From: Betaproteobacteria bacterium SCN1
GTDB lineage: Bacteria > Pseudomonadota > Gammaproteobacteria > Burkholderiales > Thiobacillaceae
Reading direction: 5' to 3'
Assembly (NCBI GenBank): GCA_008923315.1
Contig: WBSF01000009.1
Location: 1-64,000 of the forward strand
Length of the DNA: 64,000 bases
This document shows positions 14,254 through 31,044 of this stretch, piece after piece; within the stretch, counting starts at the first letter, position 1, and each line of letters starts with the position of its first letter. A model generated the notes under the pieces. The model ran no database searches, had not been told where the DNA came from, and was given only the letters and a program-made list of their open reading frames with translations. The position numbers and the translations under genes are program-made.

Positions 14254-14309
14254 GATGGTTCTCCTTGAAGAATAGGAAAAGGCAAGGCCCCGTGAGGGGC
14301 CATGCCGGA

Positions 14310-15227
14310 TCAGAACGAAGCAGCCAATGCCGGCTCCTGCTCTTCGACCTCACCTGCGGGCTCGCGCTCGGCGGGCTCGACAGGCTGGTCGGCAGCGGTG
14401 CCGGCGGCGTCCTCGGCTTCGGGCGCGGGTGCGTCCTCGGCCTGCGGCGCCTCGGCTTGCGCCTGGCTCGTCGGATAGACCTGGGTGCCGTCGATCTTGA
14501 TCAGACCGATGTGGATCAGTGTCGATTCCAGGCTCGCTCCCGGCTCCCCGGCGCGCTCACCCTTGGTGCGGATGTACGGATCGATCTTCATGTCGTTCAA
14601 CTTGAAGGCGATCAGCACCTTGCGGTCCCCTTCGATGGCCTGCACGCACCGGCGAACCAGGTGCTCGGCTTCAGGGGTGGCGACGATGGTGTCGAAGTAC
14701 CGATAGTCCGGTTCACCGACAGGCCCGGCCAGAGCCGCGACGCAGCACGACAGGAACGGATCGCCATCCTTGGGGGTGACGTCCTTCGGACGGCTGAGGT
14801 AGCCGATGCCGCGGGTGATCAGCTCGTGCTGCTTGATGGAAGCCAGTTCGGCCCGGTCAAGCGGCTCGGTCTTGAGCAGTCGCGCCTTGAGGGACGCGGC
14901 GGCTTCACCCTTGCGCTCGCCCTTGTCGCGGATGTACGCATCGCCCCAGAGGTCGCCGAGGCGGAAGCGCACCAGCGGGCGCTGCTTGGGATCGTCAACG
15001 CCGATATAGCGTTCGACCAGCTTCTTGGCCTCGGCACCGGAGACCTTGACATCGAAGTAGCGGTAGCTGGGGTCCTTTGCGGAGCCGACCAGCGCGGCAA
15101 CGGTGCATGCCAGGAAAGGCTGCGCACGGCGGCCGCCCCGGACAGGCACTTCACGGACACGCTGGATGTAGCCGATGCCCGAGGTGTGGAGGTCGAAATA
15201 CGATTTCTCGTTGGATGTGGTGTTCAT
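14310..15227 (-). CDS. STY4534-family ICE protein (DUF3577) with two homologous domains
   Basis: 305 residues. Two copies of one domain are visible. Copy 1 (about 17-115) has GIGYIQRVREV, QPFLACTVAALVG, YRYFDVKVSGAEA and DAYIRDKGERKGE. Copy 2 (about 138-240) has GIGYLSRPKDV, DPFLSCCVAALAG, YRYFDTIVATPEA and DPYIRTKGERAGE. The tail is acidic and Ala/Pro-rich. The family is annotated as an ICE replication protein; a DNA-binding OB-like fold is plausible but not proved. The start at 15227 was chosen for its GGAGATTC site, and the gene has a long structured leader. Confidence 0.85.
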   Translation of the reverse strand: MNTTSNEKSYFDLHTSGIGYIQRVREVPVRGGRRAQPFLACTVAALVGSAKDPSYRYFDVKVSGAEAKKLVERYIGVDDPKQRPLVRFRLGDLWGDAYIRDKGERKGEAAASLKARLLKTEPLDRAELASIKQHELITRGIGYLSRPKDVTPKDGDPFLSCCVAALAGPVGEPDYRYFDTIVATPEAEHLVRRCVQAIEGDRKVLIAFKLNDMKIDPYIRTKGERAGEPGASLESTLIHIGLIKIDGTQVYPTSQAQAEAPQAEDAPAPEAEDAAGTAADQPVEPAEREPAGEVEEQEPALAASF

Positions 15228-15265
15228 GGTGAATCTCCATAGGGAAGAAGCGGAGACACACCAGC

Positions 15266-15304
15266 CCCACGCATGCGGGGAAAGGTGCGTAACCCCGCGG
15301 TGGG
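15266..15304 (-). promoter_or_regulatory. Simple GC hairpin in the leader of the STY4534-family gene
   Basis: Nested stems CCCAC/GTGGG and GCGGGG/CCCCGC enclose a 12-base loop. It sits between the three-hairpin element at 15381-15467 and the start codon at 15227, the same placement as the simple hairpin in the other structured leaders. Confidence 0.55.
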
Positions 15305-15380
15305 TTGATAAGGCGAAAGCATCCGCCACCAGAGACTGGTGGCCGCTCGCGGAAGGATGCGGTGCGAGCTGGCTCGGTCA

Positions 15381-15467
15381 CGCAGTGGGAACTGCGCCGC
15401 AACCTCGAAGACCGATGGTTGCCTGGCATGTCGCTGACGACGTCAGCAGGCATGGGGCCAGCATGGC
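15381..15467 (-). promoter_or_regulatory. Structured leader element, copy A
   Basis: Three consecutive stems: CGCAGT/ACTGCG (15381-15396), GCAACC/GGTTGC (15399-15422) and GCTGAC/GTCAGC (15433-15447) with CATG flanks, then ATGGC 16 bases beyond. The same order recurs at 18585-18652, 21563-21628 and 22460-22539 with different paired bases. It lies in the 264-base leader of the STY4534-family gene. Transcribed from the minus strand it would be a cis-acting RNA; the sequence cannot say what it responds to. Confidence 0.65.
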
Positions 15468-15491
15468 GGGGCCTCGCGCGCGCGGCAGCAA

Positions 15492-16001
15492 TCAATCGGC
15501 ATCCGGGCGTTTCCCTTTGTCCGCGCCGTCAGGCGCGCGCCACAGGCACTTGGGGCCGCGCAGGTGGTCGGGGGTGTCGGCGCGAGGACGGCTGGGGCGG
15601 CTCCAGGTACCGCCGCCGCGTGTACCGACCAGCCGCCAGCCGGCAGCGCGCAGGCTGGCACCGCCTTCCTCGGGCAAGGTGTAGGTGATCAGCCGCGTGT
15701 AGCCCAGGGCCTTAGCCGCCTTCCAGGCGGCTCCGTAGAGCTTGCTGCAGGCGTTCGGCGCGCCATCGGTGCAGAGCCTGGTGACTTCGAGGGTCCAGCC
15801 GTCGTCCAGGTGACGCGCGACCGGGCGACCGACGATGGCCACGCCGCAAATACTGTCGCTGCCGGACAGCGTGACCGCCAGCGCGAACTTCGCCCCCTGA
15901 ACCGGGCGGTGGTGTCGGTGGTGCTCCTGCACGAAGGCATTGGCGGTGCGCAGCGACACGGGCACCAGTTGCAGCCGTGGCGAGGCCAATGCCGTGCGCA
16001 C
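15492..16001 (-). CDS. XF1762-like GNAT-fold protein
   Basis: 169 residues from the GTG at 16001, which lies 4 bases after the upstream gene's stop; an ATG further up at 16103 would overlap that gene by 98 bases and adds a low-complexity stretch. The core RTANAFVQEHHRHHRPVQG, then GVAIVGRPVARHLDDG, TLEVTRLCTDGAPNACSKLY and RLITYTLPEEGGASLRAAGW, is the XF1762 family pattern with an acetyltransferase-like fold. The substrate is unknown. It is likely co-transcribed with the PP-loop gene before it. Confidence 0.8.
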   Translation of the reverse strand: MRTALASPRLQLVPVSLRTANAFVQEHHRHHRPVQGAKFALAVTLSGSDSICGVAIVGRPVARHLDDGWTLEVTRLCTDGAPNACSKLYGAAWKAAKALGYTRLITYTLPEEGGASLRAAGWRLVGTRGGGTWSRPSRPRADTPDHLRGPKCLWRAPDGADKGKRPDAD

Positions 16002-16005
16002 AGCA

Positions 16006-16848
16006 TCAATCGCCGCAGAAGCAGGCGAGCGGTTCCTCGGCGGCATCGAACAGGTCGCCCTGGTCGGCGGCGAAGCGCGCCAGGTCGGCGTAGCTGGGGC
16101 CATCGGCGCGAAACCGAGCGCCGCTGGGCTTGCTCGCCAAGTTCAGGGATTCCATGCGAATCCACCACACGGCGGCTTCGGGCCGGGCCTTGATGAGGGC
16201 CAGGCGCTGCCCGCGCGGCTTCAGGAAGCACAGATCGCAGTTGCCTTCGAGCGTGCGTCCGTTGACCGTGAGCAGGTCGAGGTCGAACGGCTGCGCCTGC
16301 CAGAAGGTGCCCACGTCGCGCACGGTGACGCCGGCATCCGCCAGCGGCATGCACATGGTTTCGTGGGTCGATTCGGTGGAGTGGCCGCGTGCGCGAATCT
16401 TGGCGACGCGCCGTTGCTCGTCGGCCCTGATGCCGATCATCTGGTCCCAGTCCGTCCAGCCCAGGTGCCGCAGGAAGCGGTGCATCGGGCGAATCTTCAG
16501 GCTGGTCGTGCAGCCGCGCGCCACGGGATTGGGCAGGTACTGGCGCTTGCGTATCAGCGCCTCGAACGGTTCGCCCTGACGGCTGGCTCGCTCGAAATCG
16601 ACCAGCATGAAGCCCGGCTCCATGGGCAGGTATTCCAGCCAGTGAATCGGCATCTGCCAGCGTTCGGCGCAGTCGCGCACGAAGCGCAAGGTCGCTTCCA
16701 CTTCCTTGCCGGTGTTGGCGAAGCAGACCACGGTGTCAGCAGGCAGGCCGCCATTGGCCTGCAACACACGCCAGAGCATGTACGCGCTGGTGCGTCCCCC
16801 GGAGAAGCTGATGCAGGTGGGTTGGGTGATCTTGAACGGGTCGTGCAT
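16006..16848 (-). CDS. PAPS-reductase-family PP-loop ATPase
   Basis: 280 residues. The PP-loop is CISFSGGRTSAYML near residue 12. Conserved Cys residues occur in ARGCTTSLKIRPM, CDLCFLK and the C-terminal CFCGD. The family activates substrates by adenylation; this ICE version is annotated as CysH-like but probably does not reduce sulfate. A GGAGAC site precedes the ATG at 16848, immediately below a hairpin. It is followed by the XF1762-like gene in the same unit. Involvement in nucleic-acid or sulfur modification is only an inference. Confidence 0.85.
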   Translation of the reverse strand: MHDPFKITQPTCISFSGGRTSAYMLWRVLQANGGLPADTVVCFANTGKEVEATLRFVRDCAERWQMPIHWLEYLPMEPGFMLVDFERASRQGEPFEALIRKRQYLPNPVARGCTTSLKIRPMHRFLRHLGWTDWDQMIGIRADEQRRVAKIRARGHSTESTHETMCMPLADAGVTVRDVGTFWQAQPFDLDLLTVNGRTLEGNCDLCFLKPRGQRLALIKARPEAAVWWIRMESLNLASKPSGARFRADGPSYADLARFAADQGDLFDAAEEPLACFCGD

Positions 16849-16860
16849 GCGGTCGTCTCC

Positions 16861-16900
16861 GTGGGCATGTCGGCGGCAGGCCGACGAGGCAGGCCATGGC
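16861..16900 (-). promoter_or_regulatory. Structured leader element, partial copy E
   Basis: Stem GTCGGC/GCCGAC (16869-16885) preceded by GGGCATG and followed by CCATGGCGG. It has the third hairpin and the ATGGC tail of copies A-D but not the other two stems. It ends 12 bases from the start codon of the PP-loop gene and would border its ribosome-binding site. Confidence 0.45.
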
Positions 16901-16941
16901 GGCCGGAGACGAGCGCGCACGCGCGGCGGTGGCCGCGGTAC

Positions 16942-16970
16942 GAAGAAAGGAAAGCCCCCGGATGGGGGCT
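16942..16970 (-). terminator. Terminator after the DUF3085 gene
   Basis: On the minus strand AGCCCCC/GGGGGCT closes a four-base loop and is followed by a pyrimidine-rich TTTCCTTTCTTC tract. It lies 28 bases past the DUF3085 stop codon, so the PP-loop gene needs its own promoter. Confidence 0.65.
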
Positions 16971-16997
16971 GCGAGGGCCCGCGCGGCGGTTGCTGCG

Positions 16998-17351
16998 CTA
17001 TGCCGGGGGAACCACCTCCAGCGACAGATGCGTGGCGGTGGCGGACAGCATCAGGTCGTCCGTGCCGTGCAGGATGCGTGCGAAGACGCCTTCCTTCGGA
17101 TCGAAGAACTCGCCGAAGTCGTCGCCGCCCAGTTCGGCGCGTGCCAGCTCCCACCAGTCATCGAACGGATCGGTATCCGGGTTGCAGCCGACGGCATAGG
17201 CCAACAGCTTCACCCGACCGTCCGGGCGTCGTTCCCCGCGCTCGGCGAGGAAGTACACGCCCTGATCCTTGGCGAGGATCACGCGGCCCTGAGTGGCGAT
17301 CGCCTCGGCCAGCACGGGGCGCAGGTCGGAGCCTCTGAATCGCAGGGACAT
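16998..17351 (-). CDS. DUF3085 family protein
   Basis: 117 residues starting MSLRFRGSDLRPVLAEAIAT after a GGAGA site. The pattern GVYFLAERGERRPDGRVKLL, then YAVGCNPDTDPFDDWWELAR and ELGGDDFGEFF, is the DUF3085 signature. The function of the family is unknown; it occurs on ICEs and plasmids. Terminator-like hairpins lie on both sides, so it may be transcribed alone. Confidence 0.82.
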   Translation of the reverse strand: MSLRFRGSDLRPVLAEAIATQGRVILAKDQGVYFLAERGERRPDGRVKLLAYAVGCNPDTDPFDDWWELARAELGGDDFGEFFDPKEGVFARILHGTDDLMLSATATHLSLEVVPPA

Positions 17352-17375
17352 GATTGAAATCTCCTGTGTGGAATG

Positions 17376-17413
17376 GAAAAGAAAAGGCCCTCCACCCGGA
17401 TGGATGGAAGGCC
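17376..17413 (-). terminator. Terminator-like hairpin upstream of the DUF3085 gene
   Basis: GGCC and TCCA pair with GGCC and TGGA across one mismatch. On the minus strand it is followed by a TTTTCTTTTC tract. It would end transcription from the genes at 17444-18468. Confidence 0.5.
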
Positions 17414-17443
17414 CGTGGGGCATGCGGCCGGTAGGCTTCGGCG

Positions 17444-17662
17444 TCAGCCGTAGTGCCGCCGGGCCTCCTGCCATGGAACGAAGCGCGCATCACCGCCAGT
17501 GGAGATCGGAAGCTGCAAGCTCCCGGTCTCTTCCGCCGAGAAGCACGTCGCCTGGTCGAACGGGACCCAGCCGAACTCGTTGGACCAGAAGCCGGCGCTG
17601 TCGCCGATGGCCGACTCGTTGGGCGAATACACCACCCAGCAGTCGCCGGCCTTGGACGTCAT
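17444..17662 (-). CDS. Small hypothetical ICE protein (72 aa)
   Basis: 72 residues, MTSKAGDCWVVYSPNESAIG onward, with conserved-looking aromatic residues (GFWSNEFGWVPFDQA). The ATG at 17662 overlaps the preceding gene's stop by four bases, which fixes the start and indicates translational coupling. No named domain recognised. Confidence 0.7.
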   Translation of the reverse strand: MTSKAGDCWVVYSPNESAIGDSAGFWSNEFGWVPFDQATCFSAEETGSLQLPISTGGDARFVPWQEARRHYG

Positions 17663-18468
17663 GCCGGCACTGCCTGGCGGCGGGCCGCTTTGGCGTCGAT
17701 CACGCTCACGTCGATCAGGCGCCAGCGTCCGTCGTCGATGAGCCGCTCCAGCACTTCGCCGAGCATGTCGAAATACACCTCGTCGTGCCGATCGACCAGC
17801 TCGCCGTCGCGGCGCAGTTCCACCACGTAGGTGTCCCCGCCGCGGTCGTAGAGGATCGTCACCTGGCCCTCGAACTTTGCGGTCGAGACCGTGAAGCTGA
17901 TCGCCGGCGGGGTCTCGATGATCTTCGACGGCTTGGGATCGACCCAGGTGAAGTCCCGGGCGCCCGCATCGACCAGCATGTGGGTGATGCGCCGGAACCC
18001 GTCGGGCGCCGGCATTTCCTCCAACTGCTCGATGAGCTGGCCCAGCTCCATGCACTGCGGCTCGGGGATGGGCAGCTTGGCTGGCGCGGAGCCGAGAATA
18101 TGCCTCGTGATGGTGTAAGGCGTGCCATCCGAGGTTTTCTCGGTGATGACTTCCGGGGTGTCCGCGCGCAGGCCGTCGAAGCGGTGGCGGGCATACGGTT
18201 GGACATGCACCTTGGCGCCTTCGCTGGGAACGGCGGTCACCAGGTTGGGGTCGAGCACCGCGAACTCGCTGGGTTTGAGCTTGACGACGATGGCATCGTC
18301 CGTCGCGGCGACCACCTTGCCGTCGAAAGGCTGGGGATCGAAGGCGAAGCCCAGCGCCGAAGGCTGCGGCTGATCATCGAACACACGGTACTTGATCGAC
18401 CGCACGTTGCGGGGCACATGACCCGCGACAAGCGAAGGCATCAGGGTCTTGATGAGAGAGCGATCCAT
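17659..18468 (-). CDS. Hypothetical ICE protein (269 aa)
   Basis: Starts at 18468 after GGAGATTC. The first part (RSIKYRVFDDQPQPSALGFA, then FDGKVVAATDDAIVVKLKP) reads like a beta-rich domain. The C-terminal part (FEGQVTILYDRGGDTYVVEL, then HDEVYFDMLGEVLERLIDDG) resembles a small alpha/beta domain. I do not recognise a family. It is coupled to the 72-residue gene downstream and has a structured leader upstream. No export or membrane signal is seen. Confidence 0.7.
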   Translation of the reverse strand: MDRSLIKTLMPSLVAGHVPRNVRSIKYRVFDDQPQPSALGFAFDPQPFDGKVVAATDDAIVVKLKPSEFAVLDPNLVTAVPSEGAKVHVQPYARHRFDGLRADTPEVITEKTSDGTPYTITRHILGSAPAKLPIPEPQCMELGQLIEQLEEMPAPDGFRRITHMLVDAGARDFTWVDPKPSKIIETPPAISFTVSTAKFEGQVTILYDRGGDTYVVELRRDGELVDRHDEVYFDMLGEVLERLIDDGRWRLIDVSVIDAKAARRQAVPA

Positions 18469-18503
18469 GGGAATCTCCTTGAGGAAAAACAAGGGATTCC
18501 CTG

Positions 18504-18529
18504 CCCACAAGGGAGAGGTCCCTTGTGGG
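18504..18529 (-). promoter_or_regulatory. Simple hairpin in the leader of the 269-aa gene
   Basis: A perfect 11-bp stem CCCACAAGGGA/TCCCTTGTGGG with a four-base loop, 36 bases upstream of the start codon. It is the longest uninterrupted stem among these gap hairpins and does not resemble the others in base sequence. Confidence 0.6.
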
Positions 18530-18584
18530 TGGATGGACGCGGTACGTCCGTAGGAAGAAACGACCAGCACGGTTTCCCGCGCTT

Positions 18585-18652
18585 GCAGCCTCGAAGGTCT
18601 TGGCTGCCTGGGCATGTGTCGGCAACGCCGACGAACATGGGGCAAGGATGGC
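18585..18652 (-). promoter_or_regulatory. Structured leader element, copy B
   Basis: Stems GCAGCC/GGCTGC (18585-18607) and CATGT+GTCGGC/GCCGAC+ACATG (18613-18639), then ATGGC 16 bases beyond the inner stem, as in copy A. The first hairpin of copies A, C and D is weak here. Relative to copy A the inner stem bases change on both sides together. It lies in the 282-base leader of the 269-residue gene. Confidence 0.65.
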
Positions 18653-18720
18653 CCTGGAGTGAGCGGTCCGCCCGTAGGAAACCGCACCGCGCCGCATCCG
18701 CTTTCCTTCGCTGCGGGCAA

Positions 18721-18744
18721 GAAAAAGCCCCTCGGAAGGGGCTT
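18721..18744 (-). terminator. Terminator after the 92-aa gene
   Basis: On the minus strand AAGCCCC/GGGGCTT is followed by TTTTTC. It begins 7 bases after the stop codon at 18751, isolating the structured-leader unit downstream. Confidence 0.75.
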
Positions 18745-18750
18745 GGGGGG

Positions 18751-19029
18751 TCAAGCTTCGTAAACGAAGTAGTGCTCGCGCTGGCGCGGGAAGAAGACAT
18801 GCTTCCATGTATCGCCGCTGGTGTTGCCACCGTCGAACACGACTATTTCGTAGTCGTCCACGTCGGTGTCCACCAGGTCGGCGCTGGCGATATGGCGCAT
18901 GTGCAGCGTGCCACGCATGCGCTCGAATACCAGGATCTGGCCGATGGCGTCGTCCTGGCTCATGGCATTGACGCAGGCTCCAAGCTGGTGCTCGAAGTCG
19001 AGCGCGGGCGAGATGAGGTCGGGGAACAT
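18751..19029 (-). CDS. Hypothetical ICE protein (92 aa)
   Basis: 92 residues, acidic in the middle (SADLVDTDVDDYEIVVFDGG) with aromatic C-terminal strands. The start at 19029 follows an AGGAGCAC site. No recognised domain. A terminator follows directly, and an inverted repeat ACCAGCCCG/CGGGCTGGT (19052-19084) precedes it. Confidence 0.65.
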   Translation of the reverse strand: MFPDLISPALDFEHQLGACVNAMSQDDAIGQILVFERMRGTLHMRHIASADLVDTDVDDYEIVVFDGGNTSGDTWKHVFFPRQREHYFVYEA

Positions 19030-19123
19030 GAGGGTGCTCCTGTGAAAATGAACCAGCCCGGCTCCGGGCAGGAGACGGGCTGGTATGGGGGAGAAAGAGG
19101 AAGGATGGCGCGTCGCGTGGCTG

Positions 19124-19861
19124 CTAGGACTCGGCCAGCGGCAGGCCCGGTAGCACGGAAGCGTCGGCGTCGAGGATCAGGATGCGCACGTCGGCCTGGC
19201 CAGCCAGTTCAAGGATGTTCGCCAGGTCGTCCGGCATGCCCTTGTTCCGGTGCTCCTGCCGAAGCTGCTCGGCGGTGATGCCCTCGGCATACTCCAGGTT
19301 CTGGTCCGTCCAGGGCGTGGAGATCAGCTTGATGCCGATCGCCGGGCTGTACGGAACCCGGAACGCGATGAACAGGAAAGCCTCCGGCGTGGCGAGGTCT
19401 GCCAGGTTGGCGAGGTAGTGCCAGGTATCGACGGTGATGTGCTCACGGCTGATTTCCCAGGCCCGGCTGAAATACCCGGTCTCGAAACTCAGGCGCTGCA
19501 CGACTTCCCGCGCGGCCTCGGCCGAATAGGTGTCACCGACGTGGACCGGACGGCCGTCGAAGTCGTCGCCATGGATGGCATAGACCACGGCGCCGATCAC
19601 GCCTTGGCCGCTGACGCCCTCACCGGCATCGCATTCGGCCAGCACCTCGGCACTCACGGGGTGAGGACCATTGCTGACCACGGCGAAATCGCTGGTGACG
19701 ATGCAGGACGATGAAACCAGCTCCTCGTCGGAGAGGTGTTCTTGGCTCTGGTGGATGTTTCGCCAGACATGCGGGCTTCCGTCCTCGTAGCTGATGCACA
19801 GCGTGCGGACGATTTTCAGATTCCAGTAGCCGCGGAGAAAGGGATTGGGTTTCTGGGACAT
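19124..19861 (-). CDS. Hypothetical ICE protein (245 aa)
   Basis: 245 residues from the ATG at 19861 (GGAGAGTT site), beginning MSQKPNPFLRGYWNLKIVRT. It has mixed alpha/beta character, with GVIGAVVYAIHGDDFDGRPV and AFLFIAFRVPYSPAIGIKLI. I could not assign a domain; a DUF5983-type relationship crossed my mind but I cannot support it. It is preceded by a perfect leader hairpin and reads with its neighbours. Confidence 0.65.
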   Translation of the reverse strand: MSQKPNPFLRGYWNLKIVRTLCISYEDGSPHVWRNIHQSQEHLSDEELVSSSCIVTSDFAVVSNGPHPVSAEVLAECDAGEGVSGQGVIGAVVYAIHGDDFDGRPVHVGDTYSAEAAREVVQRLSFETGYFSRAWEISREHITVDTWHYLANLADLATPEAFLFIAFRVPYSPAIGIKLISTPWTDQNLEYAEGITAEQLRQEHRNKGMPDDLANILELAGQADVRILILDADASVLPGLPLAES

Positions 19862-19899
19862 GGGAACTCTCCAGATTTGAATAATGGAGCCAATCCCCG

Positions 19900-19922
19900 C
19901 CACCGGGAATTGGACCCGGTGG
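19900..19922 (-). promoter_or_regulatory. Leader hairpin before the 245-aa gene
   Basis: A perfect 8-bp stem CCACCGGG/CCCGGTGG with a seven-base loop, about 40 bases upstream of the start at 19861. Confidence 0.55.
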
Positions 19923-19941
19923 GTTGAAAGTGGAAAATGCG

Positions 19942-20628
19942 TCAGGCGGCGCTGATCGTCGGCGTCTGGGCCAGTCGTTCGGCGACGCGATGGCGCACAC
20001 TCAGGCGGAAATGCTCGTCGTTGATGCCGGCGAGCAGGTTGGCGGCCTCCAACGCGATCAACGCCGAGGCCTCTTCGATGTCGGTGGCCACGATGGCCTT
20101 GCGCAGTTGGTCGCCGAGTTGGAGCGCCTGCGAGGACGTTCTGAAGACCTGTACCTCGCGGCTCAGGTAGCAGCCGTGGCCACCGAACTCGAACAGCCTT
20201 GGCTTGCTGCAATACCAGCAGCCCTCGAACTGGATGGCGGTCAGGTGATGGCCGTCATCGAAGCGGGAGGCGATCAGAAGCAAGGCTTCCAGGTCGGCGC
20301 TGTCCTCGAACTGGTGGTGCTCGATCAGGTTCTCCAGCTCCCCGTCCTGGTCAGCGCCGAAGTGCGCGGCCAGCCGTTCAAGCAGAGGCGGAATCGACAA
20401 CTCTTCGTCGTCGGGCATGGGGATGCCGAGTTGTGCGGCCAGGTTTTCCAGACCGTCCAGCACATCTGTCCATCGCGGATTATTGGTCTCGGCGATCTGG
20501 GCGATGTAGGCCTGCCCATTGCTGGGATGGTGTTCGTCCAGCCTGAAGGCACCGAACAGTGCCTTGATGACGGGAGTAACGTGGTCGAGCACGAGAACGC
20601 CCGTGCCTTCGTAGTAGTTGTTTGCCAT
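19942..20628 (-). CDS. Hypothetical ICE protein (228 aa)
   Basis: 228 residues from the ATG at 20628 after an AAAGGAGCC site. The first half is acidic and helical. The second half has CWYCSKPRLFEFGGHGCYLS, a Cys-containing beta hairpin that may bind metal, then two helices ending RHRVAERLAQTPTISAA. No family recognised. It lies in the block of conserved, uncharacterised ICE genes. Confidence 0.65.
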   Translation of the reverse strand: MANNYYEGTGVLVLDHVTPVIKALFGAFRLDEHHPSNGQAYIAQIAETNNPRWTDVLDGLENLAAQLGIPMPDDEELSIPPLLERLAAHFGADQDGELENLIEHHQFEDSADLEALLLIASRFDDGHHLTAIQFEGCWYCSKPRLFEFGGHGCYLSREVQVFRTSSQALQLGDQLRKAIVATDIEEASALIALEAANLLAGINDEHFRLSVRHRVAERLAQTPTISAA

Positions 20629-20730
20629 GCTGGCTCCTTTCGGGGAAGTGAGCGGAGCCAGCCCATGCGGACGACGGCATCCGCAGGGAATCGCCCAAGG
20701 CCGTTGGCGCCGGGCGATGGGGAAGAAATT

Positions 20731-20762
20731 GAGGGACATGGCCTTGTGGGCGCATGTCCCTC
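20731..20762 (-). promoter_or_regulatory. Hairpin between the 130-aa and 228-aa genes
   Basis: A perfect 10-bp stem GAGGGACATG/CATGTCCCTC with a 12-base loop. A second small stem GCGGA/TCCGC lies nearer the downstream start. Unlike the terminators it has no T tract. Confidence 0.55.
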
Positions 20763-20803
20763 ACGGGGGGGATCGAGAGGACGGTGGCGTGCCGGAGACC
20801 GGC

Positions 20804-21196
20804 TCACCAGCCGTTGTAGTTCACCAGCAGGTCGGCGATGACCTTGCGGCGCTCCAGATCGAGACCGTCGAAGTCCGACAGCCCGTGGAAGTGGCAGCGC
20901 TTGAGCATGGCACCGCCCTCGCGCGCGTTGTAGAAGCTGACCATGGCGGACAGGAACATGCGTTCGCCGCTGCTCAGGACGCCGAGGGCATCGTTGAGCC
21001 GCAGCATGTCGGGACGCAAATCCCACTTGGTGTTGGCCTGGTTCAGGCCTTCACGGGTGCCGTCGCCGAACCACTCGGGACCAGCAATCTCGACACCGCG
21101 CTTCCAGGCCTCGAAGAAGGCTTGGGGCGCGGCAGCGAAACGCTGATCTTCCCGCATGATCTGATCGACGACTTCCCGCGGCAATAGCTGGTTCAT
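20804..21196 (-). CDS. Hypothetical ICE protein (130 aa)
   Basis: 130 residues, mostly helical, with MLRLNDALGVLSSGERMFLS and ending VIADLLVNYNGW. It starts at 21196 with an upstream GGAGAAATC site and lies 21 bases below the 70-residue gene, so the two are probably co-transcribed. No recognised family. Confidence 0.65.
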   Translation of the reverse strand: MNQLLPREVVDQIMREDQRFAAAPQAFFEAWKRGVEIAGPEWFGDGTREGLNQANTKWDLRPDMLRLNDALGVLSSGERMFLSAMVSFYNAREGGAMLKRCHFHGLSDFDGLDLERRKVIADLLVNYNGW

Positions 21197-21217
21197 GACG
21201 TGATTTCTCCAGTTGGA

Positions 21218-21430
21218 TCAGGGAACGGCGAGCTGGGACCAGCCGCCTCTTTCGAGGGCGCGTTGAGCCGCGGCATAGCTGCGGAAGTACTCGCGGGATT
21301 CCCGCGAAACGGGACCTTCGGTATCGCGCGTGCCGATGTAGTGGCCGGCGGCGCTTTGCAGGACTTCGAGCGGCAGGAACTTGCCGCAGTAGGTCAGGGC
21401 CAACTGGCCGAAAGAGGCTTGCTGGGACAT
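21218..21430 (-). CDS. Small hypothetical ICE protein (70 aa)
   Basis: 70 residues from the ATG at 21430 after an AAGGAGCC site. The sequence MSQQASFGQLALTYCGKFLP, then REYFRSYAAAQRALERGGW, looks like a short helical protein. It is preceded by a 332-base leader that contains structured element copy C and a terminator. Confidence 0.65.
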   Translation of the reverse strand: MSQQASFGQLALTYCGKFLPLEVLQSAAGHYIGTRDTEGPVSRESREYFRSYAAAQRALERGGWSQLAVP

Positions 21431-21562
21431 GGACGGGCTCCTTGGAAAAGCGGGGCCTCGTCCCTCACGGGATGGCAGCTCCCGCACGCGGTTGGAAAAA
21501 AAGCATCGGCGTCACGGGGACGCGCGTCCGCGAGATTGATGCGATGCGGACTGGTGGGTGAC

Positions 21563-21628
21563 GCGGGAGAGACCCGCGGCAGCCTGGAACCCTGGCTGCT
21601 GGCATGTGCTGACGAATCAGCGAACATG
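21563..21628 (-). promoter_or_regulatory. Structured leader element, copy C
   Basis: All three stems are present: GCGGG/CCCGC (21563-21577), GCAGCC/GGCTGC (21579-21599), and CATGT+GCTGA/TCAGC+ACATG (21603-21628) with a four-base loop. The outer CATGT/ACATG pairing is identical to copy B while the inner stem differs on both strands. The ATGGC tail of copies A, B, D and E is not evident. Confidence 0.65.
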
Positions 21629-21704
21629 CGGGCAGCTTCGTGCGAGGGCCGCTCGGCGTCAGTGGGAAAACGGCATCCGGCCCAGCCCCGATTGATGGGC
21701 GCAG

Positions 21705-21737
21705 AGAAAAGAAAAGCCCCGCATCGAGTGCGGGGCT
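21705..21737 (-). terminator. Terminator after the 185-aa gene
   Basis: On the minus strand AGCCCCGCA/TGCGGGGCT closes a five-base loop and runs into TTTTCTTTTC. It starts 25 bases after the stop codon at 21763. Confidence 0.75.
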
Positions 21738-21762
21738 GTCAGGAGGGTGCGGTGGCGCTGGG

Positions 21763-22320
21763 TCAGTCGGGCTTGTCGCCCAGGACATGCTGCTTCCACA
21801 AGTCGAATGCCTGCTCGGGCGGAAGCTCGGCGAGGATGACGATGGGCTGGGCCTGCCGGCTGCGCAGCTTTGCAAAGTACGCCGCGCGGTCGGCAATGGC
21901 CTTGAGCTTGATGCCCTTGATGAACAGCAGTTTGCCGTCCTTGATGAACAGCACCTTGTTGCCGATGTCGCGGTTGAACGCGGCTCGCACCTTGCGTTCC
22001 GCGTGCATGGCATCGGCCAGCTCATCGATCAGGAAGTCGAGCGTCATGTCGATGTAATGAGGATCTTCGCCCTCCTGGCCGAGATCGAGCGGCGTGGGCG
22101 GCAGGCCCTTGGCGAAGGCTTCGGCCTGAGCCAGCAGCGCCGCCTTGCCGTTGAGTGCGCGTAGGAACGTCGATCCGCCATGCCCGTCGTTGCGGGCCTC
22201 GGCGATGGGAGTGTCGTCGAACACGATGGTGGCGGTGAAGCACAGCGTTTCCTCGCTGGCGAAGTCGGCCACCTTGAGGTTCTTCAGCGTGATGCGGTTT
22301 TGCTTGGTGATGGTTTCCAT
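21763..22320 (-). CDS. Hypothetical ICE protein (185 aa)
   Basis: 185 residues from the ATG at 22320, beginning METITKQNRITLKNLKVADF. An N-terminal beta-rich part (ETLCFTATIVFDDTPIAEAR) precedes helical segments and LFIKDGKLLFIKGIKLK. It lies downstream of the cytosine methyltransferase gene with structured leader copy D between them. No named domain recognised. Confidence 0.68.
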   Translation of the reverse strand: METITKQNRITLKNLKVADFASEETLCFTATIVFDDTPIAEARNDGHGGSTFLRALNGKAALLAQAEAFAKGLPPTPLDLGQEGEDPHYIDMTLDFLIDELADAMHAERKVRAAFNRDIGNKVLFIKDGKLLFIKGIKLKAIADRAAYFAKLRSRQAQPIVILAELPPEQAFDLWKQHVLGDKPD

Positions 22321-22359
22321 GGGAAGTCCTGAAATCGACCGGGCGGCGACATGCCCCTG

Positions 22360-22382
22360 ACGGGACGTGGCGACCATCCCGT
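22360..22382 (-). promoter_or_regulatory. Simple hairpin in the leader of the 185-aa gene
   Basis: Stem ACGGGA/TCCCGT enclosing 11 bases, 40 bases upstream of the start at 22320. It is in the same relative position as the simple hairpins below copies A and B. Confidence 0.45.
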
Positions 22383-22459
22383 GGGTTGGAGAAAGGAGGC
22401 ATCGATGCCCCGGTGGGCAGCGTTCGCCGGTGAGATGCCGAAGCGAACTGGCGGGTGGC

Positions 22460-22539
22460 GTGGGCGGAACCCACGGCAGCCTGGACACCCTGGCTGCGGG
22501 CTGCTGCCGATACATCGGCAATGCAGGAAGGAGAATGGC
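22460..22539 (-). promoter_or_regulatory. Structured leader element, copy D
   Basis: Stems GTGGG/CCCAC (22460-22474), GCAGCC/GGCTGC (22476-22497), and CTGC+TGCCGA/TCGGCA+GCAG (22501-22526), followed by ATGGC. Here even the outer CATGT/ACATG pair of copies B and C is replaced by CTGC/GCAG, a two-sided change that keeps pairing. It fills most of the gap between the methyltransferase and the 185-residue gene. Confidence 0.65.
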
Positions 22540-22563
22540 GCGGCCCGCAGGCTGCGTCGCCGA

Positions 22564-24171
22564 TCAAACCGAAGCGGTCGAGCCCGTCTTGTGCAGGCAC
22601 TGCATCAGCCGGTGGCCCAGCCAAGCCATGCACGGGACGGCCATGGAGTTGCCGATCGCCTTGTAGCGCGGAGCGTCCGCGGCAGGCTTGCCGCGGTATG
22701 GGATCAGCGTGTAGTCGTCGGGCATGCCCTGCAGCCGCTCGCACTCCATGGGCATCAGCCGCCGCACCCGCCAGTGCGACCAGTCGCCGGGGCCGGGGTC
22801 GTTCCAGTCGTAGCGGAAATGCGCCTCGAAGTCGGGGGCCAGCACATGGGGCTTGTCCGCGCCGCCGCCGCTGGTGCGCAGTGCGGCCGCTACGCTGCCG
22901 CCCAGCTCGGCGGCAAGACCCTGCGGCCGTCCCCGCAGGGCAACGCAGGCCACCATCGGCACCCCGTAGCCTGGCTTGCCGTTGGACAGGACGGTGCAAG
23001 CCACCTGTCCGTGGCCCGACTCGAAGCGCACTTCGCCGCGGTTATTCTGCGCGAACGCGATGGCAGGCACGACACCGGCGTTCGCATGGCTGTTGCGATG
23101 CCCGCCAGCGCGCAGCGTCGGCGTCAGGTCGATCGTCGCATCCGCGCCGTTGCCCTGGGCGGTGAAGGCGATGATTGGCACGCCCTTGCCCGTGCCGTCC
23201 TCGCTGCTGCCCTTGCCGTTGTTGGCGGTATCGAGGGCATGGGCGATGCTGCCGGCGACCGACTGCACCATGAACGTCTCGGTGCGGATGTCGTGCTTGG
23301 GGCCAGCGGCCATCAGGCATGCCGCCACATCGACGGGGCCGGTGCCGCCGCTGAATCCGAACGTCGTCGTGACCTGACCGTAGGGCTGCTTCAGTCCTGC
23401 GTATCCCGAGTACTCGCCTGCTGCCGCAGCACCCGGTCCAGCAGCGCGGGCAGCTTCTTGCCACGGCGCGCGGCCCGCAGAAGAATCCCCGCGCAGGCCT
23501 GGGCGCTCAAAAAGTACTTCGGCGGGATCGAGGTCATCACCACCACATGCCACAAGAAACACGCGCTTGCGGCGTTGGGCGACACCGAAATATTGAGCGT
23601 CGAGCACGCGCCAGGCGATGCGGCGGCGGGGTCCAGACACACAACCAGCGTGCGCCCATTTTTCCCCTGGCGGCTGGAGCGCACGGCCTTCTCCGGCCAG
23701 TGCGCCCAGGAAATGCCCGAAGGCATTGCTGCGGTCGTTGAGGACGCCGGGGACGTTTTCCCAGACGAGCGTTGCCGGCGAGCGGCGGTTTTGGTGGCGG
23801 GTTTGGTCGATGGCATTTGCAAGCTCCACATAGGCAAGGGTCAAGGCTCCACGCGGGTCGTTCAGCCCCTGGCGCGCGCCGGCAACGCTGAACGACTGGC
23901 ACGGCGTGCCGCCGACCAGGATGTCGGGCGCTGGCACGATGCCGGAGCGCACCTGGCGGGCGATCGCGGTCATGTCGCCGAGGTTGGGCACGTGGGGGTA
24001 GCGGTGGGCGAGCACGGCGCTCGGGAAGGCGTCGATCTCGGCGAACCACGCGGCTTGCAGGCCGAGAGGTTGCCAGGCGAGGCTCACGGCCTCGATGCCG
24101 CTGCACACGCTGCCGTACAGCAGTGGCGCGGCCTGGGGCGCACCGCGAAGGGTGCGAGGTTGCGGGTTCAT
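22564..24171 (-). CDS. DNA (cytosine-5) methyltransferase
   Basis: 535 residues. Motif I is YGSVCSGIEAVSLAW, motif IV GGTPCQSFSVAGAR with the catalytic Cys, motif VI VWENVPGVL, motif VIII QRRKRVFLVA and motif X RYKAIGNSMAVPCMAW. The target-recognition region between VIII and IX (about 230-455) is long and Gly/Asn-rich (GGTGPVDVAAC, SEDGTGKGVPIIAF), as in phage and ICE enzymes. No restriction endonuclease is adjacent, so it is probably a solitary methylase that protects the element or marks its DNA. The start at 24171 is preceded by GGAGACCCGAC. The upstream gap to topB is 515 bases. Confidence 0.92.
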   Translation of the reverse strand: MNPQPRTLRGAPQAAPLLYGSVCSGIEAVSLAWQPLGLQAAWFAEIDAFPSAVLAHRYPHVPNLGDMTAIARQVRSGIVPAPDILVGGTPCQSFSVAGARQGLNDPRGALTLAYVELANAIDQTRHQNRRSPATLVWENVPGVLNDRSNAFGHFLGALAGEGRALQPPGEKWAHAGCVSGPRRRIAWRVLDAQYFGVAQRRKRVFLVACGGDDLDPAEVLFERPGLRGDSSAGRAPWQEAARAAGPGAAAAGEYSGYAGLKQPYGQVTTTFGFSGGTGPVDVAACLMAAGPKHDIRTETFMVQSVAGSIAHALDTANNGKGSSEDGTGKGVPIIAFTAQGNGADATIDLTPTLRAGGHRNSHANAGVVPAIAFAQNNRGEVRFESGHGQVACTVLSNGKPGYGVPMVACVALRGRPQGLAAELGGSVAAALRTSGGGADKPHVLAPDFEAHFRYDWNDPGPGDWSHWRVRRLMPMECERLQGMPDDYTLIPYRGKPAADAPRYKAIGNSMAVPCMAWLGHRLMQCLHKTGSTASV

Positions 24172-26708: not shown

Positions 26709-26985
26709 GTTCGTCCATCCGATTTCCGTGGTTCGCTGAGTTGCTGGAAACTAGGATGCCGAGCACCACCAGAGGCAGCAGCAAACAAGCCGCATGCGGC
26801 GGCGACCACTTTCACGGGATGGAATGGCTGGGTCGGGGATGGCGTGCAGCCGGGGATATGCGGGCCGGGAGCCGCGATTTTCGGGAGCGCGTGGAAGCCG
26901 GTGGACGTTGATGGAGCTATCCCCTGGGGATAGCTCGCGAGAGCATGGAGGGCGGCGAAGACGTGCGACCGCCCTCCATGCCGGG
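26709..26985. other. topB upstream region with palindrome copy 1
   Basis: A 277-base gap between topB and ssb on the minus strand. Apart from the palindrome at 26914-26936 and a short A+T-rich patch just upstream of topB (26710-26760) I see no gene. It is a candidate promoter and operator region for topB. Confidence 0.45.
26914..26936. repeat. 23-bp palindrome, copy 1 (upstream of topB)
   Basis: A perfect palindrome: arm GAGCTATCCCC, one central T, then the exact complement. Three further copies lie at 28943, 29065 and 29195. With a single-base centre it cannot form a useful RNA loop, so a DNA site for a dimeric protein is more likely. Confidence 0.8.
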
Positions 26986-27499: not shown

Positions 27500-28027
27500 T
27501 CACCGATCGCGCATTGCAGAGGGGATGGACGTGAGCCGGCGCAGGTAGGCGTCTTCCGCCTCGGCCGCCTTGCTGGCGCATTCCTGCGCCTGCCTGCCCA
27601 AGGTGTGCAACAGGCTGATCTGCATGTTCAGCGTGATGCGCTGAAGTTCGATCGCGTGCAGATCGGCCAGCAGGTTGACCGGCGTGCTGGTGCTCGCCAT
27701 CAGTGCCTGCCACAGGGCCACGCCCATGGCCGAGCGGTCGTGCCTGCGCCAGCGCAAGAACGTCGTTCCCGCGCCAGTGGTCTGCTGGGCCAGTTCGATG
27801 GGCAGCAGGTGGAAGGGATGCCCGATGGCCTGTTGCAGCACTTGTCGCTGCGCCAGGCCGATCAACTCGTCGCGCATGGCGAAGCACTGGCTGGCCCAGA
27901 CCTCGAAGTCCCTCTTACCTTTAAAAGGCTTTAAAAGGCCTTTTAGAGAGGCCGCGTGTTCCAGCCGCATGAAGGCACCCTGTTGCAGGCCCCGGAAGTA
28001 GCGGGTGGACTGGTTCAGATCGCTCAT
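27500..28027 (-). CDS. DUF3158 family ICE protein
   Basis: 175 residues, helical throughout (RYFRGLQQGAFMRLEHAASL, then TTFLRWRRHDRSAMGVALW), matching DUF3158. It overlaps the PFL_4669-family gene by four bases (ATGA). The function is unknown; the family is always near ssb and topB in this ICE class, suggesting a part in element replication or processing. Confidence 0.82.
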   Translation of the reverse strand: MSDLNQSTRYFRGLQQGAFMRLEHAASLKGLLKPFKGKRDFEVWASQCFAMRDELIGLAQRQVLQQAIGHPFHLLPIELAQQTTGAGTTFLRWRRHDRSAMGVALWQALMASTSTPVNLLADLHAIELQRITLNMQISLLHTLGRQAQECASKAAEAEDAYLRRLTSIPSAMRDR

Positions 28028-28824
28028 GCGGATTCGTCCTCGCCGACAGCGGGTGCACCTTCGGACAAGTCGGCAGCAGCGGCTTCGTCGCCATTGGCAA
28101 GGGAAGCGCCTACGGCTGCGGCAGGCCCCTCACCGCGCTGCTGCAGGCCACGACGCACGATGGGCGGTGCAAACTTCGAGCGGCGCATGCCTTCGAGCAC
28201 GTCCTGTGGCAGTTCGCCGAATTTCTCCAGCGCCGCCCGCGCTGCGGCATTCTTCGCCGCGAAGTCGTCGCGGGTGCAGCCCGAGTAGCGGTACTGCTGG
28301 GCCAGCGAGAACAGGCTGCGCAGCGCGTGCGCGCCCTCGTTGAGCCAGCGCTCCAAGGTGCTGCGGTCGATGAGCGCGGTGTGGTGGGCGAGGATCAGCT
28401 TGCGCGCGATGTCGTCGTAGTCGGCCAGCAGATAGACCGCCGCGAAGCCCAGTTGCGCGTTGACGAACAGCGGCAGCTTGACGGGTTGCACATTGAGGTT
28501 CTCGCCCAGGCTCAATGCCGCAGGCACGCCCGCCAGTGCCTGGTCCACCTGTTCGCGCAAGGTCTGCAGCGTGGTCCTGGTCTGGTCGAGCTTGTCCTCG
28601 ATGCGCAGCATCCACCAGTCTGAATACGGGTCGTCCTGCTCCGAGCCGCGCTTCATCTTGTTCATCACCGCGATGTAGCCGTTCAGGCCGACGATGCCAG
28701 GTCGCCCTTCGGCGGCGGCGCGGCCGTGCCAGATGCGGGAAGCGTGGTGGGTGTGCAGCGTCAGCGACATCGCGCTGCGCAGGGAGCCGAGGTTGAGTTG
28801 CAATGGTTCGTTGCTGGTTGCCAT
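28024..28824 (-). CDS. ICE protein, TIGR03761 (PFL_4669) family
   Basis: 266 residues. The start MATSNEPLQLNLGSLRSAMS, then HHASRIWHGRAAAEGRPGIV and NGYIAVMNKMKRGSEQDDPY, identifies the PFL_4669 family. The C-terminal tail is acidic and Ala-rich. Function unknown. It heads the unit with DUF3158 and ssb and lies just below three copies of the 23-bp palindrome, so its promoter is probably controlled there. Confidence 0.88.
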   Translation of the reverse strand: MATSNEPLQLNLGSLRSAMSLTLHTHHASRIWHGRAAAEGRPGIVGLNGYIAVMNKMKRGSEQDDPYSDWWMLRIEDKLDQTRTTLQTLREQVDQALAGVPAALSLGENLNVQPVKLPLFVNAQLGFAAVYLLADYDDIARKLILAHHTALIDRSTLERWLNEGAHALRSLFSLAQQYRYSGCTRDDFAAKNAAARAALEKFGELPQDVLEGMRRSKFAPPIVRRGLQQRGEGPAAAVGASLANGDEAAAADLSEGAPAVGEDESA

Positions 28825-28942
28825 GGTGAGCGCTCGCAGGTGGACAGGGAGCCGCCAGCATCCGCATGCAGCGGAAGGCAGTCAGTCAACAAACCGAAAT
28901 GGGCCAGGCCCCGGTTTCGTCGTGATCGTCGCGCGCGGGTGA

Positions 28943-28965
28943 GAGCTATCCCCAGGGGATAGCTC
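28943..28965. repeat. 23-bp palindrome, copy 2
   Basis: Perfect arms GAGCTATCCCC with a central A, about 120 bases upstream of the PFL_4669-family start. Confidence 0.8.
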
Positions 28966-29064: not shown

Positions 29065-29087
29065 CGGCTATCCCCTGGGGATAGCTC
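29065..29087. repeat. 23-bp palindrome, copy 3
   Basis: Central T. The inner 19 bases are perfect; the outer two bases of the left arm are CG instead of GA. Confidence 0.75.
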
Positions 29088-30483: not shown

Positions 30484-31044
30484 TTAACCCAGTCCCTGAT
30501 CGACCCAGTTCTTGATCGCGGCCCAGACCACCGACAGCGGCAGTGACATGCCTTCGGCCAGGTCCATTGCCGCATCGAGAATCGAGGTTTCATCCTCCAG
30601 ATCGACGTTTCTGCTGCTGGTCACGGCCTTCCATTGCCGCCACAGTTCCGTATCTTGGGTCTCGTCCAAGACAGGGTGGCGCCCCTTGCGCTTAGGCAGG
30701 CCGAGGATCTCGCGCCGCAGCGCAACTTCCTGGTGGGTGAGGCCGTAAAAGCGGCTCACCATTTCCGTGCTGGCACCCAGGCGCAACATGCGATCGACCG
30801 TGGCGATCTCCTTCTCCACGTCCTGCGCCTGTTTGAGCAGCCGCCGGAGCACTTCGCGATTGACCGTCACCGAACACCACGACACATTGGCGTTGGCCAG
30901 CACGCTGATCAGCGCAGGGTGCTTGAGCGCGTACAGTTCTTCCTCTCCGAACCCCATCAGCTTGCAGCGCCGCAGTTGCCCATTGCGCAGGTCATACAGC
31001 GCCTGGGCAATGACGGCCTGGTTGAGGGGGTGCGGTGCAGACAT
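30484..31044 (-). CDS. DUF2857 family regulator; position of bisD
   Basis: 186 residues. The central part MLRLGASTEMVSRFYGLTHQ, then LRREILGLPKRKGRHPVLDE, is the DUF2857 signature (STY4526-like). In ICEclc the DUF2857 protein BisD pairs with BisC to activate the transfer programme; the equivalence here rests on family and gene order. It follows parB by 15 bases and precedes the STY4528-family gene by 3 bases, so all three are in one operon. Confidence 0.82.
   Translation of the reverse strand: MSAPHPLNQAVIAQALYDLRNGQLRRCKLMGFGEEELYALKHPALISVLANANVSWCSVTVNREVLRRLLKQAQDVEKEIATVDRMLRLGASTEMVSRFYGLTHQEVALRREILGLPKRKGRHPVLDETQDTELWRQWKAVTSSRNVDLEDETSILDAAMDLAEGMSLPLSVVWAAIKNWVDQGLG

What the first reader, a model, noticed from the sequence alone, without database searches (positions are those of the whole stretch)
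15381..22539. A repeated three-hairpin leader RNA with compensatory changes in front of separate ICE genes
Four gaps (15228-15491, 18469-18750, 21431-21762, 22321-22563) share one architecture. A first stem is seen in A, C and D. A second stem GCARCC/GGYTGC is followed by a third stem in CATGT...ACATG or equivalent flanks, then usually ATGGC about 15 bases on. The third stem reads GCTGAC/GTCAGC, GTCGGC/GCCGAC, GCTGA/TCAGC and TGCCGA/TCGGCA in A-D, and the outer flank changes from CATGT/ACATG to CTGC/GCAG in D: both sides change together. A partial fifth copy (E, 16861-16900) abuts the PP-loop ATPase start. In A, B and D a simple GC hairpin lies between the element and the start codon. The downstream genes are unrelated, so this looks like a shared cis-acting RNA of the element. 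I recall that published motifs such as radC RNA occur near mobile-element genes, but I cannot match the consensus from memory.
Basis: partly seen in the sequence, partly recalled or inferred. Interest (0 to 1): 0.85.

Follow-up and report, generated by a model that had tools for sequence, protein, structure and literature searches.

The report
radC leader RNAs in an ICE
The repeated hairpins are four copies of a known but unexplained bacterial RNA family (radC RNA), and their surroundings suggest they are the start of messages made when a mobile DNA element prepares to transfer, often with a final hairpin that can hide the ribosome-binding site.

Summary
Copies A-D are full-length Rfam RF01754 (radC RNA) matches on the MINUS strand (123, 105, 86, 71 bits; cut-off 40). 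Copy E is at chance level. The host element is ICEclc-like (DUF2857/BisC, AcaB, SSB, topoisomerase).

New here:
(1) 231 of 248 radC copies carry an inverted repeat at nearly fixed spacing upstream, outside the Rfam model. It also precedes the AcaB-ssb operon, without radC RNA, in 12 of 12 non-redundant loci tested. I read it as the operator of BisDC "transfer competence" promoters (inferred).
(2) An extra helix and a pseudoknot have covariation support; a second pseudoknot has less. CaCoFold had already flagged missing pairs in this family.
(3) Leaders of unlike genes often end in a hairpin pairing the Shine-Dalgarno sequence beside AUG; not seen in D. Support for a freeing, alternative pairing is mixed.

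Best reading: radC RNA leads transcripts of the BisDC regulon and controls their translation. What it senses is unknown. Membership is ordinary; the regulon link and expression platform were not found in the papers searched.

The parts
15319..15464 (-). copy A, radC RNA, leader of the DUF3577 gene (14310-15227)
   Evidence: RF01754 123.4 bits; gene by Pfam
18503..18649 (-). copy B, radC RNA, leader of the ~270-aa gene of unknown family ending at 17659
   Evidence: RF01754 104.7 bits; no Pfam match for the gene
21503..21638 (-). copy C, radC RNA, before the 70-aa gene 21218-21430
   Evidence: RF01754 85.9 bits
22399..22536 (-). copy D, radC RNA, before gene 21763-22320
   Evidence: RF01754 70.7 bits
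15491..15519 (-). inverted-repeat element upstream of A; overlaps the stop of the Mom-like gene
   Evidence: matrix score 18.6; not in the training set
18676..18705 (-). inverted-repeat element upstream of B
   Evidence: matrix score 27.3; this copy was in the training set
21665..21694 (-). inverted-repeat element upstream of C
   Evidence: matrix score 23.1; not in the training set
22563..22591 (-). inverted-repeat element upstream of D (weakest)
   Evidence: matrix score 15.5; not in the training set
28888..28918 (-). same inverted repeat before the AcaB-DUF3158-SSB-topoisomerase genes, no radC RNA there
   Evidence: matrix score 23.0; found in 12 of 12 non-redundant AcaB upstream regions
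15228..15262 (-). Shine-Dalgarno-pairing hairpin of A, ends at the base before AUG
   Evidence: segment fold z -3.74; with 75 nt upstream and 15 nt of the gene an alternative fold is the minimum
18469..18501 (-). Shine-Dalgarno-pairing hairpin of B
   Evidence: segment fold z -8.70
21431..21463 (-). hairpin at the start codon of C (weaker)
   Evidence: segment fold z -1.44
30484..31044 (-). DUF2857 protein, BisC-like regulator
   Evidence: PF11198 E 6.7e-63; BisC carries DUF2857 (PMC7423338, passage)
28024..28824 (-). AcaB-family gene, first gene of the inrR/ssb-type operon
   Evidence: PF08900 E 1.4e-80

Best explanation
Each element is a radC RNA (RF01754) forming the 5' part of the leader of a transcript from an ICE promoter that is switched on in transfer-competent cells. 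In the DNA, an inverted repeat (about 9 + 10 + 11 bases) ends about 36 bases before the RNA's first helix. It is most likely the operator where the BisDC activator works, with the RNA starting near Rfam's 5' edge. In the RNA, P1, P2, P3 and a fourth helix are tied by one or two pseudoknots into a compact domain. After it comes a variable stretch that, in most leader families, ends in a hairpin pairing the Shine-Dalgarno sequence beside the start codon. The conserved domain most likely tunes translation by deciding whether that hairpin forms, so that several ICE genes (DUF3577, unknown genes, RadC) answer to one signal. Shown: family membership, the repeat and its spacing, covariation, the hairpin in several unlike gene families. 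Inferred: BisDC binding, start site, translational switching, existence of a ligand or binding protein.
For: RF01754 matches. 257 copies in 114 named 8-kb loci; of the 94 loci with more than one copy none has mixed strands; repeat score >=15 in 231 of the 248 copies with enough upstream sequence. In the whole, redundant set the repeat starts at offset -63 to -66 in 267 of 271 such copies; shuffles reach 15 in 0.08% of 1200. The matrix, trained on radC copies only, finds the repeat 92-95 bases before the AcaB start in 12 of 12 non-redundant loci. AcaB homologues at E<1e-60 in 46 of 46 tested genomes of named radC loci; DUF2857 in 7 of 8 and AcaB in 6 of 8 unnamed radC genomes. In ICEclc a 27-bp motif is shared by 8 of 9 bimodal transfer-competence promoters, and the authors suggest post-transcriptional control to explain high coverage but ordinary reporter output of ORF81655 (PMC9286271, section 6). 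A weak, unshown primer-extension product lay ~250 bp before ORF81655 (PMC2892462, passage); by coordinate offset I equate ORF81655 with the DUF3577 gene, where P1 lies about 227 nt before the start. Covariation. Shine-Dalgarno unpaired median 0.20 in 31 radC leaders against 0.32 in 150 controls, p 9e-5; below 0.3 in 23 of 31 against 70 of 150. G-U exceeds A-C 32 to 13 on the sense strand.
Against: The published 27-bp motif sits in a supplementary figure I could not open; its identity with my repeat is inferred. The paper finds no motif outside the eight promoters and no bimodal reporter activity upstream of ORF84835 and ORF89247, which by my offsets are the equivalents of copies B and D, where I see the repeat. 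The mapped inrR start lies, by coordinate transfer, about 97 bp upstream of the repeat, and the paper's motif-to-start distance of 152 bp does not match. [quoted passage not shown] Copies before RadC genes (9 of 9) and L066 lack the repeat and overlap an upstream ORF's stop. Random 200-nt windows of the AcaB loci reach score 15 in 2.8% and 19 in 0.9% of 750. The freeing pairing is mixed: 12 of 30 leaders at p<=0.05 against 24 of 118 controls; own partner in the top 4 for 10 of 17 representatives. D shows no start hairpin. A terminator-like match with a T-rich tail ends copy C's RNA, which would also fit attenuation. Controls were not matched for intergenic context. Copies are redundant and were fetched by an exact P2 pattern.
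Confidence: 0.55

Rival explanations
1. The radC RNA is a constitutive 5' stabiliser: folded hairpins protect long ICE mRNAs, and the start hairpin only lowers translation; there is no switch.
For: Published read coverage is highest upstream of ORF81655 although reporter output is ordinary. The freeing pairing has mixed support.
Against: A covarying pseudoknot and near-invariant unpaired stretches suggest recognition. Copies inside an operon, overlapping the upstream stop, cannot protect a 5' end unless processed.
Confidence: 0.2
2. The leader acts on translation, but is bound by an ICE-encoded or host protein (autoregulation or assembly control) rather than sensing a small molecule. This overlaps the best explanation.
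For: Restricted range: 2 of 369 sampled genomes of the class, one of them the window's own; a close AcaB in 46 of 46 tested named radC genomes.
Against: No RNA-binding partner was identified; no protein was tested.
Confidence: 0.3
3. Transcription attenuation or antitermination: the leader decides whether polymerase stops at its own 3' hairpin or reads through terminators between ICE genes.
For: Terminator-like sites end the genes before B (18744-18725) and C (21737-21715). Two more matches lie inside the RNAs themselves: B 18583-18566, and C 21523-21509, whose tail is T-rich.
Against: None of the 12 terminator-like matches lies between the RNA's 3' end and AUG in A-D (shuffles average 5.5). 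The start-codon hairpins point to translation. Readthrough was not tested.
Confidence: 0.12
4. The repeats are single-stranded DNA promoters (Frpo-like) used while the ICE enters the recipient as single-stranded DNA.
For: Several copies on one strand near likely DNA-modification and DNA-handling genes, as for leading-region Frpo (PMC11541004, passages and section 8).
Against: No sigma-70-like site in 14200-23000, where shuffles give 0.6 (weak evidence); G-U over A-C bias favours sense RNA; oriT position and single-strand DNA folds were not tested.
Confidence: 0.04

Closest known systems
radC RNA motif, Rfam RF01754 (Weinberg et al. 2010, PMC2864571; table row and passages seen)
   Same: All four copies match all 149 positions above the gathering score; upstream of ORFs; one target family is RadC (PF04002, one representative).
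   Different: The model printed shows no GUYCGC/GCGRAC helix, upstream DNA repeat or start-codon hairpin. Covariance models cannot hold pseudoknots, so Rfam or the 2010 figure may already draw them; I did not see the seed alignment or the additional files.
CaCoFold re-analysis of radC/RF01754 (PMC7657543, passages seen)
   Same: Lists radC among families whose database structures miss covarying pairs.
   Different: The pairs themselves were not visible to me; they may be the same as mine.
ICEclc transfer-competence (BisDC) promoters (PMC9286271 section 6 read and other passages; PMC7423338, PMC13393423 passages)
   Same: Similar gene order around ssb/topoisomerase, DUF2857 (BisC), promoters with a common motif.
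   Different: In the passages I read, none mentions a structured leader RNA; for PMC9286271 the words leader and hairpin occur 0 times.
Translational riboswitches / RBS-sequestering leaders (general knowledge)
   Same: Conserved folded domain followed by variable sequence that often ends in a Shine-Dalgarno-pairing hairpin.
   Different: No ligand known; the freeing pairing is only partly supported.

Membership tests
radC RNA RF01754 | score above gathering threshold over the full model | tested here: met
   4 of 4 copies, 70.7-123.4 bits against 40
radC RNA RF01754 | P1, P2, P3 helices conserved | tested here: met
   helices 1, 2, 3, 5: 89-98% of cells paired on 25 chosen copies
radC RNA RF01754 | located before a coding sequence | tested here: met
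ICEclc family | BisC (DUF2857), AcaB-type gene, SSB, topoisomerase in order | tested here: met
   ICEclc itself was not fetched or compared by sequence
BisDC-dependent promoters | the published 27-bp motif | not testable with these tools
   S3 Fig of PMC9286271 could not be opened (no supplement look-ups allowed)
Frpo/ssi single-strand promoters | -35/-10-like elements within the folded DNA | tested here: inconclusive
   0 sigma-70-like sites in 14200-23000 against 0.6 expected; the single-strand DNA fold was not tested
riboswitch | direct ligand binding | not testable with these tools
   needs in-line probing or SHAPE
riboswitch | mutually exclusive expression platform | tested here: inconclusive

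The most novel reading that the evidence does not exclude
radC RNA is a pseudoknotted translational switch shared by four or five genes of one ICE, so a whole transfer programme obeys control at two levels: BisDC at the promoter and an unknown metabolite or protein at the ribosome-binding site. It could hold DNA-modification and DNA-handling genes translationally silent until the right moment of transfer.
Probability: 0.3. Interest if true: 0.8.

Novelty: new member of a known kind. Interest (0 to 1): 0.5.

Why it matters
radC RNA was listed in 2010 as a probable cis-regulatory RNA with unknown switch status. Tying it to a well-studied ICE regulon (ICEclc/BisDC) gives it a model organism, named promoters and existing reporter strains, and offers a concrete cause for the mismatch between RNA level and reporter output reported for ORF81655. 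If the switch is real, it adds RNA-level control to conjugation by this ICE family.

Tried and rejected
Copy E as a fifth radC RNA: rejected (6.0 bits, E 6.1).

A FliA/sigma-28 reading of the repeat (consensus recalled, spacing off by one) was considered and not tested; I dropped it when the same repeat appeared as a symmetric element before the AcaB operon.

RNA-hairpin reading of the repeat: its arms partly co-vary by eye, but it occurs without radC RNA; left open.

Phages, plasmids, E. coli: a search with copy A gave 2 plasmid records, 1 phage record and no E. coli match; not followed.

Equating the published 27-bp motif with the repeat by distance to the inrR start: did not fit; reported against my reading.

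Freeing pairing as a general rule: only partly supported.

Repeat in more distant AcaB elements (L212-L229): in the 11 of 18 loci where a start was guessed no score exceeded 11.5; the guesses are unreliable.

Pseudoknot 2: 25 of 25 rows have >=5 pairs and 23 of 25 >=6, against 41% and 16% with shuffled tails; but other rows' tails pair too (96% >=5, 60% >=6), so much of it is conserved sequence rather than covariation. On the fixed columns it pairs in only 46% of cells, because rows are misaligned by one base there.

Rows left out: for the repeat matrix I dropped six copies because they visibly lacked the repeat and one false regex hit, 7 of 47, so the matrix is selected for copies that have it. 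One search used 25 chosen copies without the B type. Pseudoknot 2 was left out of the G-U count. In one search one of 13 non-redundant AcaB loci (L162) had a wrongly placed start and fell out's test.

Odds changed on re-check: I had left out the ICEclc results for ORF84835/ORF89247 and the terminator-like match in copy C; best explanation lowered from 0.6 to 0.55, attenuation rival raised from 0.08 to 0.12, Frpo membership row changed to inconclusive.
Full report
WHAT IS THERE. The four gaps hold four copies of radC RNA (Rfam RF01754), all on the minus strand and all matched end to end: A 15464-15319 (123.4 bits), B 18649-18503 (104.7), C 21638-21503 (85.9), D 22536-22399 (70.7), against a gathering score of 40. 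A covariance model that I built from 34 copies, these four included, finds the same four in window 1-36000, with a gap of 50 bits to the next match; the proposed copy E is at chance level. The genome has nine copies over the cut-off: four in the window, four further along contig C6 (158.8-199 kb), and one on contig C8, about 7.5 kb from a TraI-family relaxase gene.

SURROUNDINGS. The minus strand of about 0-34 kb looks like an ICEclc-type element: TraD/TraG, DUF2859, DUF3577, DUF3275, a C5 methyltransferase and a topoisomerase, SSB and an AcaB-family gene, and DUF3158, DUF2857 and a ParA-type ATPase. BisC of ICEclc carries DUF2857 (PMC7423338, passage). Chromosomal genes are reached by 37.7 kb (IGPS). 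ICEclc ORF names minus window coordinates give nearly constant offsets: SSB and AcaB 67189, topoisomerase 67197, DUF3577 67345 (ORF names from PMC2892462, passages; I take the names to be low-end coordinates). On that inference copy A precedes the equivalent of ORF81655 and copy C that of ORF88400, two of the promoters that are bimodally active in transfer-competent cells; B and D would precede ORF84835 and ORF89247, which showed rising RNA-seq coverage but no bimodal reporter activity (PMC9286271 section 6).

THE UPSTREAM REPEAT. Aligning copies from many genera showed a conserved bipartite inverted repeat (GAA[AT]nCGG - about 10 bases - TGCCG[AT]TT) before the Rfam 5' edge. A matrix trained on 40 copies (7 of 47 dropped, six of them because they lack it) was applied to 257 nhmmer-detected copies in 114 named loci. 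Of the 248 with enough upstream sequence 231 score 15 or more, 15 score 13.6-15.0 and two lower. Shuffles reach 15 in 0.08% of 1200, and the offset is almost fixed. Window copies A, C and D, not in the training set, score 18.6, 23.1 and 15.5. The matrix also finds the repeat 92-95 bases before the AcaB gene in 12 of 12 non-redundant loci (drawn from 35), without radC RNA there. Scores are 17-23; 0.28% of 720 shuffles reach 15 and none 19, while random windows of the same loci, which can contain true sites, reach 15 in 2.8% and 19 in 0.9% of 750. The repeat is therefore not part of the RNA family as such. I read it as the operator of the BisDC-dependent promoters and possibly the published 27-bp motif, but could not open that figure, and the distance printed for inrR (152 bp) does not match my transfer. 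Weaker sites lie before the topoisomerase gene (26813) and a transfer-region gene (6176). Nine copies of one downstream gene family, RadC in the representative tested, lack the repeat, and there the upstream ORF's stop lies inside or just at the P2 core; L066 is alike. The RNA is thus kept without the promoter, which argues that it works as RNA.

THE FOLD. On 25 chosen copies, a structure with P1, P2, P3, P5, a further helix GUYCGC/GCGRAC and two pseudoknots gives 88.0% paired cells (81.7 shuffled), 21 pairs with changes on both sides (11.4), a covariation score of 0.254 (0.136 shuffled; at most 0.116 slid), and 44 further pair types (40.9 shuffled, not remarkable). The added helix is paired in every cell, as UA in 15 and CG in 10 copies at one pair. 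Pseudoknot 1 joins the P2 loop to the strand after P3: GATC/GATC, GGTC/GACC and GACC/GGTC occur, and 29 of 32 ungapped rows pair fully (shuffled mean 21.3, maximum 26 in 2000). Pseudoknot 2 joins GCAUC in the new helix's loop to GAUGC at the 3' end: 25 of 25 rows have at least 5 pairs (41% with shuffled tails), although tails of other rows pair nearly as often, so it is mostly conserved sequence. B-type copies do not show it by eye. G-U cells exceed A-C cells 32 to 13, where shuffled letters give 80 to 66 (pseudoknot 2 left out), as expected if the sense RNA folds; the cells are not independent. CaCoFold has stated that covarying pairs are missing from the radC structures (PMC7657543, passages), so the extra pairing may not be new.

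THE START-CODON HAIRPIN. Leaders of unrelated genes end in a hairpin that pairs the Shine-Dalgarno sequence and stops at AUG. The arms differ by family: GGUGUGUCUCC/GGAGAUUCACC (A), GGGAAUCCCUUG/CAAGGAGAUUCCC (B), and GGCGCCCUCC/GGAGGUUCGCC before RadC. In 31 non-redundant radC leaders the Shine-Dalgarno sequence is less accessible than in 150 control genes from the fetched loci (median unpaired 0.20 against 0.32, p 9e-5; below 0.3 in 23 of 31 against 70 of 150; folding z median -1.47 against -0.39, p 4e-4); the controls were not matched for context. In the window the last 75-95 nt of the leader give z -3.7 (A), -8.7 (B), -1.4 (C) and -0.7 (D). Upstream segments can pair the anti-Shine-Dalgarno arm over most of its length with similar energy in the A, B and RadC families; for A, a slightly shifted window makes that alternative the minimum. 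This pairing beats shuffles (p<=0.05) for 12 of 30 leaders against 24 of 118 controls, and the own partner ranks in the top four for 10 of 17 representatives. A switch is plausible but not shown. Of 12 terminator-like matches in 14200-23000 (5.5 in shuffles) none lies between the RNA's 3' end and AUG in A-D, but one lies in B's RNA and one, with a T-rich tail, at the 3' end of C's, so attenuation is not excluded.

RANGE. radC RNA was found in 7 of 199 relatives and 2 of 369 genomes of the class, the window's own counted in both. AcaB homologues at E<1e-60 occur in 46 of 46 genomes tested of those holding the 114 named loci; among eight unnamed radC genomes AcaB is found in 6 and DUF2857 in 7. 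In the class sample 24 of 369 genomes have an AcaB at E<=1e-40, and only two genomes, both among these 24, had the RNA (strict filters). The RNA thus seems to mark one ICE lineage.

LITERATURE. 'radC RNA' and 'radC motif' as phrases occur in no paper of the library, and RF01754 in two. The 2010 table rates the motif as certainly RNA, probably cis-regulatory, switch unknown. Two searches with ICEclc, leader, riboswitch, translation, post-transcriptional and untranslated-region terms showed no paper joining them among the eight rows listed each. Deletions of ORF81655-75419 or ORF88400-84388 did not measurably change ICEclc transfer (PMC9286271, passage), so the genes behind these leaders may matter only in other recipients or conditions.

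Noticed in passing
window 26916-26934, 28945-28963, 29067-29085, 29197-29215: Four copies of a palindrome GCTATCCCC[AT]GGGGATAGC (up to 2 mismatches) around the AcaB/SSB operon, also upstream of AcaB in 11 of 13 non-redundant loci; candidates for the BisD loading sites (bisS) named in PMC13393423 (passage).
   Followed up: partly
window 15492-16103 and 16006-16848 (minus): A weakly Mom-like protein (E 2e-4, below Pfam's cut-off) next to a PAPS-reductase-like protein that matches an SspD model of phosphorothioate defence (E 4e-14); with the methyltransferases this looks like a DNA-modification or anti-restriction cluster.
   Followed up: no
C6:198902-199052 (L016 18902-19052): The radC RNA before a RadC gene overlaps the end of a DsbA/thioredoxin-like ORF whose stop (18948) lies in helix P2.
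   Followed up: partly
contig C8:366873-375489 and C6:1-36000: C8 ends and C6 begins within ICE-like sequence (TraI and a radC copy on C8), so the window's ICE may be split between the two contigs.
   Followed up: no
window 6147-6176 and 26784-26813 (minus): Two further inverted-repeat sites (scores 19.3 and 16.3) before a transfer-region gene and the topoisomerase gene, without radC RNA.
   Followed up: no
window 21499-21523 (minus): Copy C's last hairpin and the following run of T look like an intrinsic terminator (sequence).
   Followed up: no
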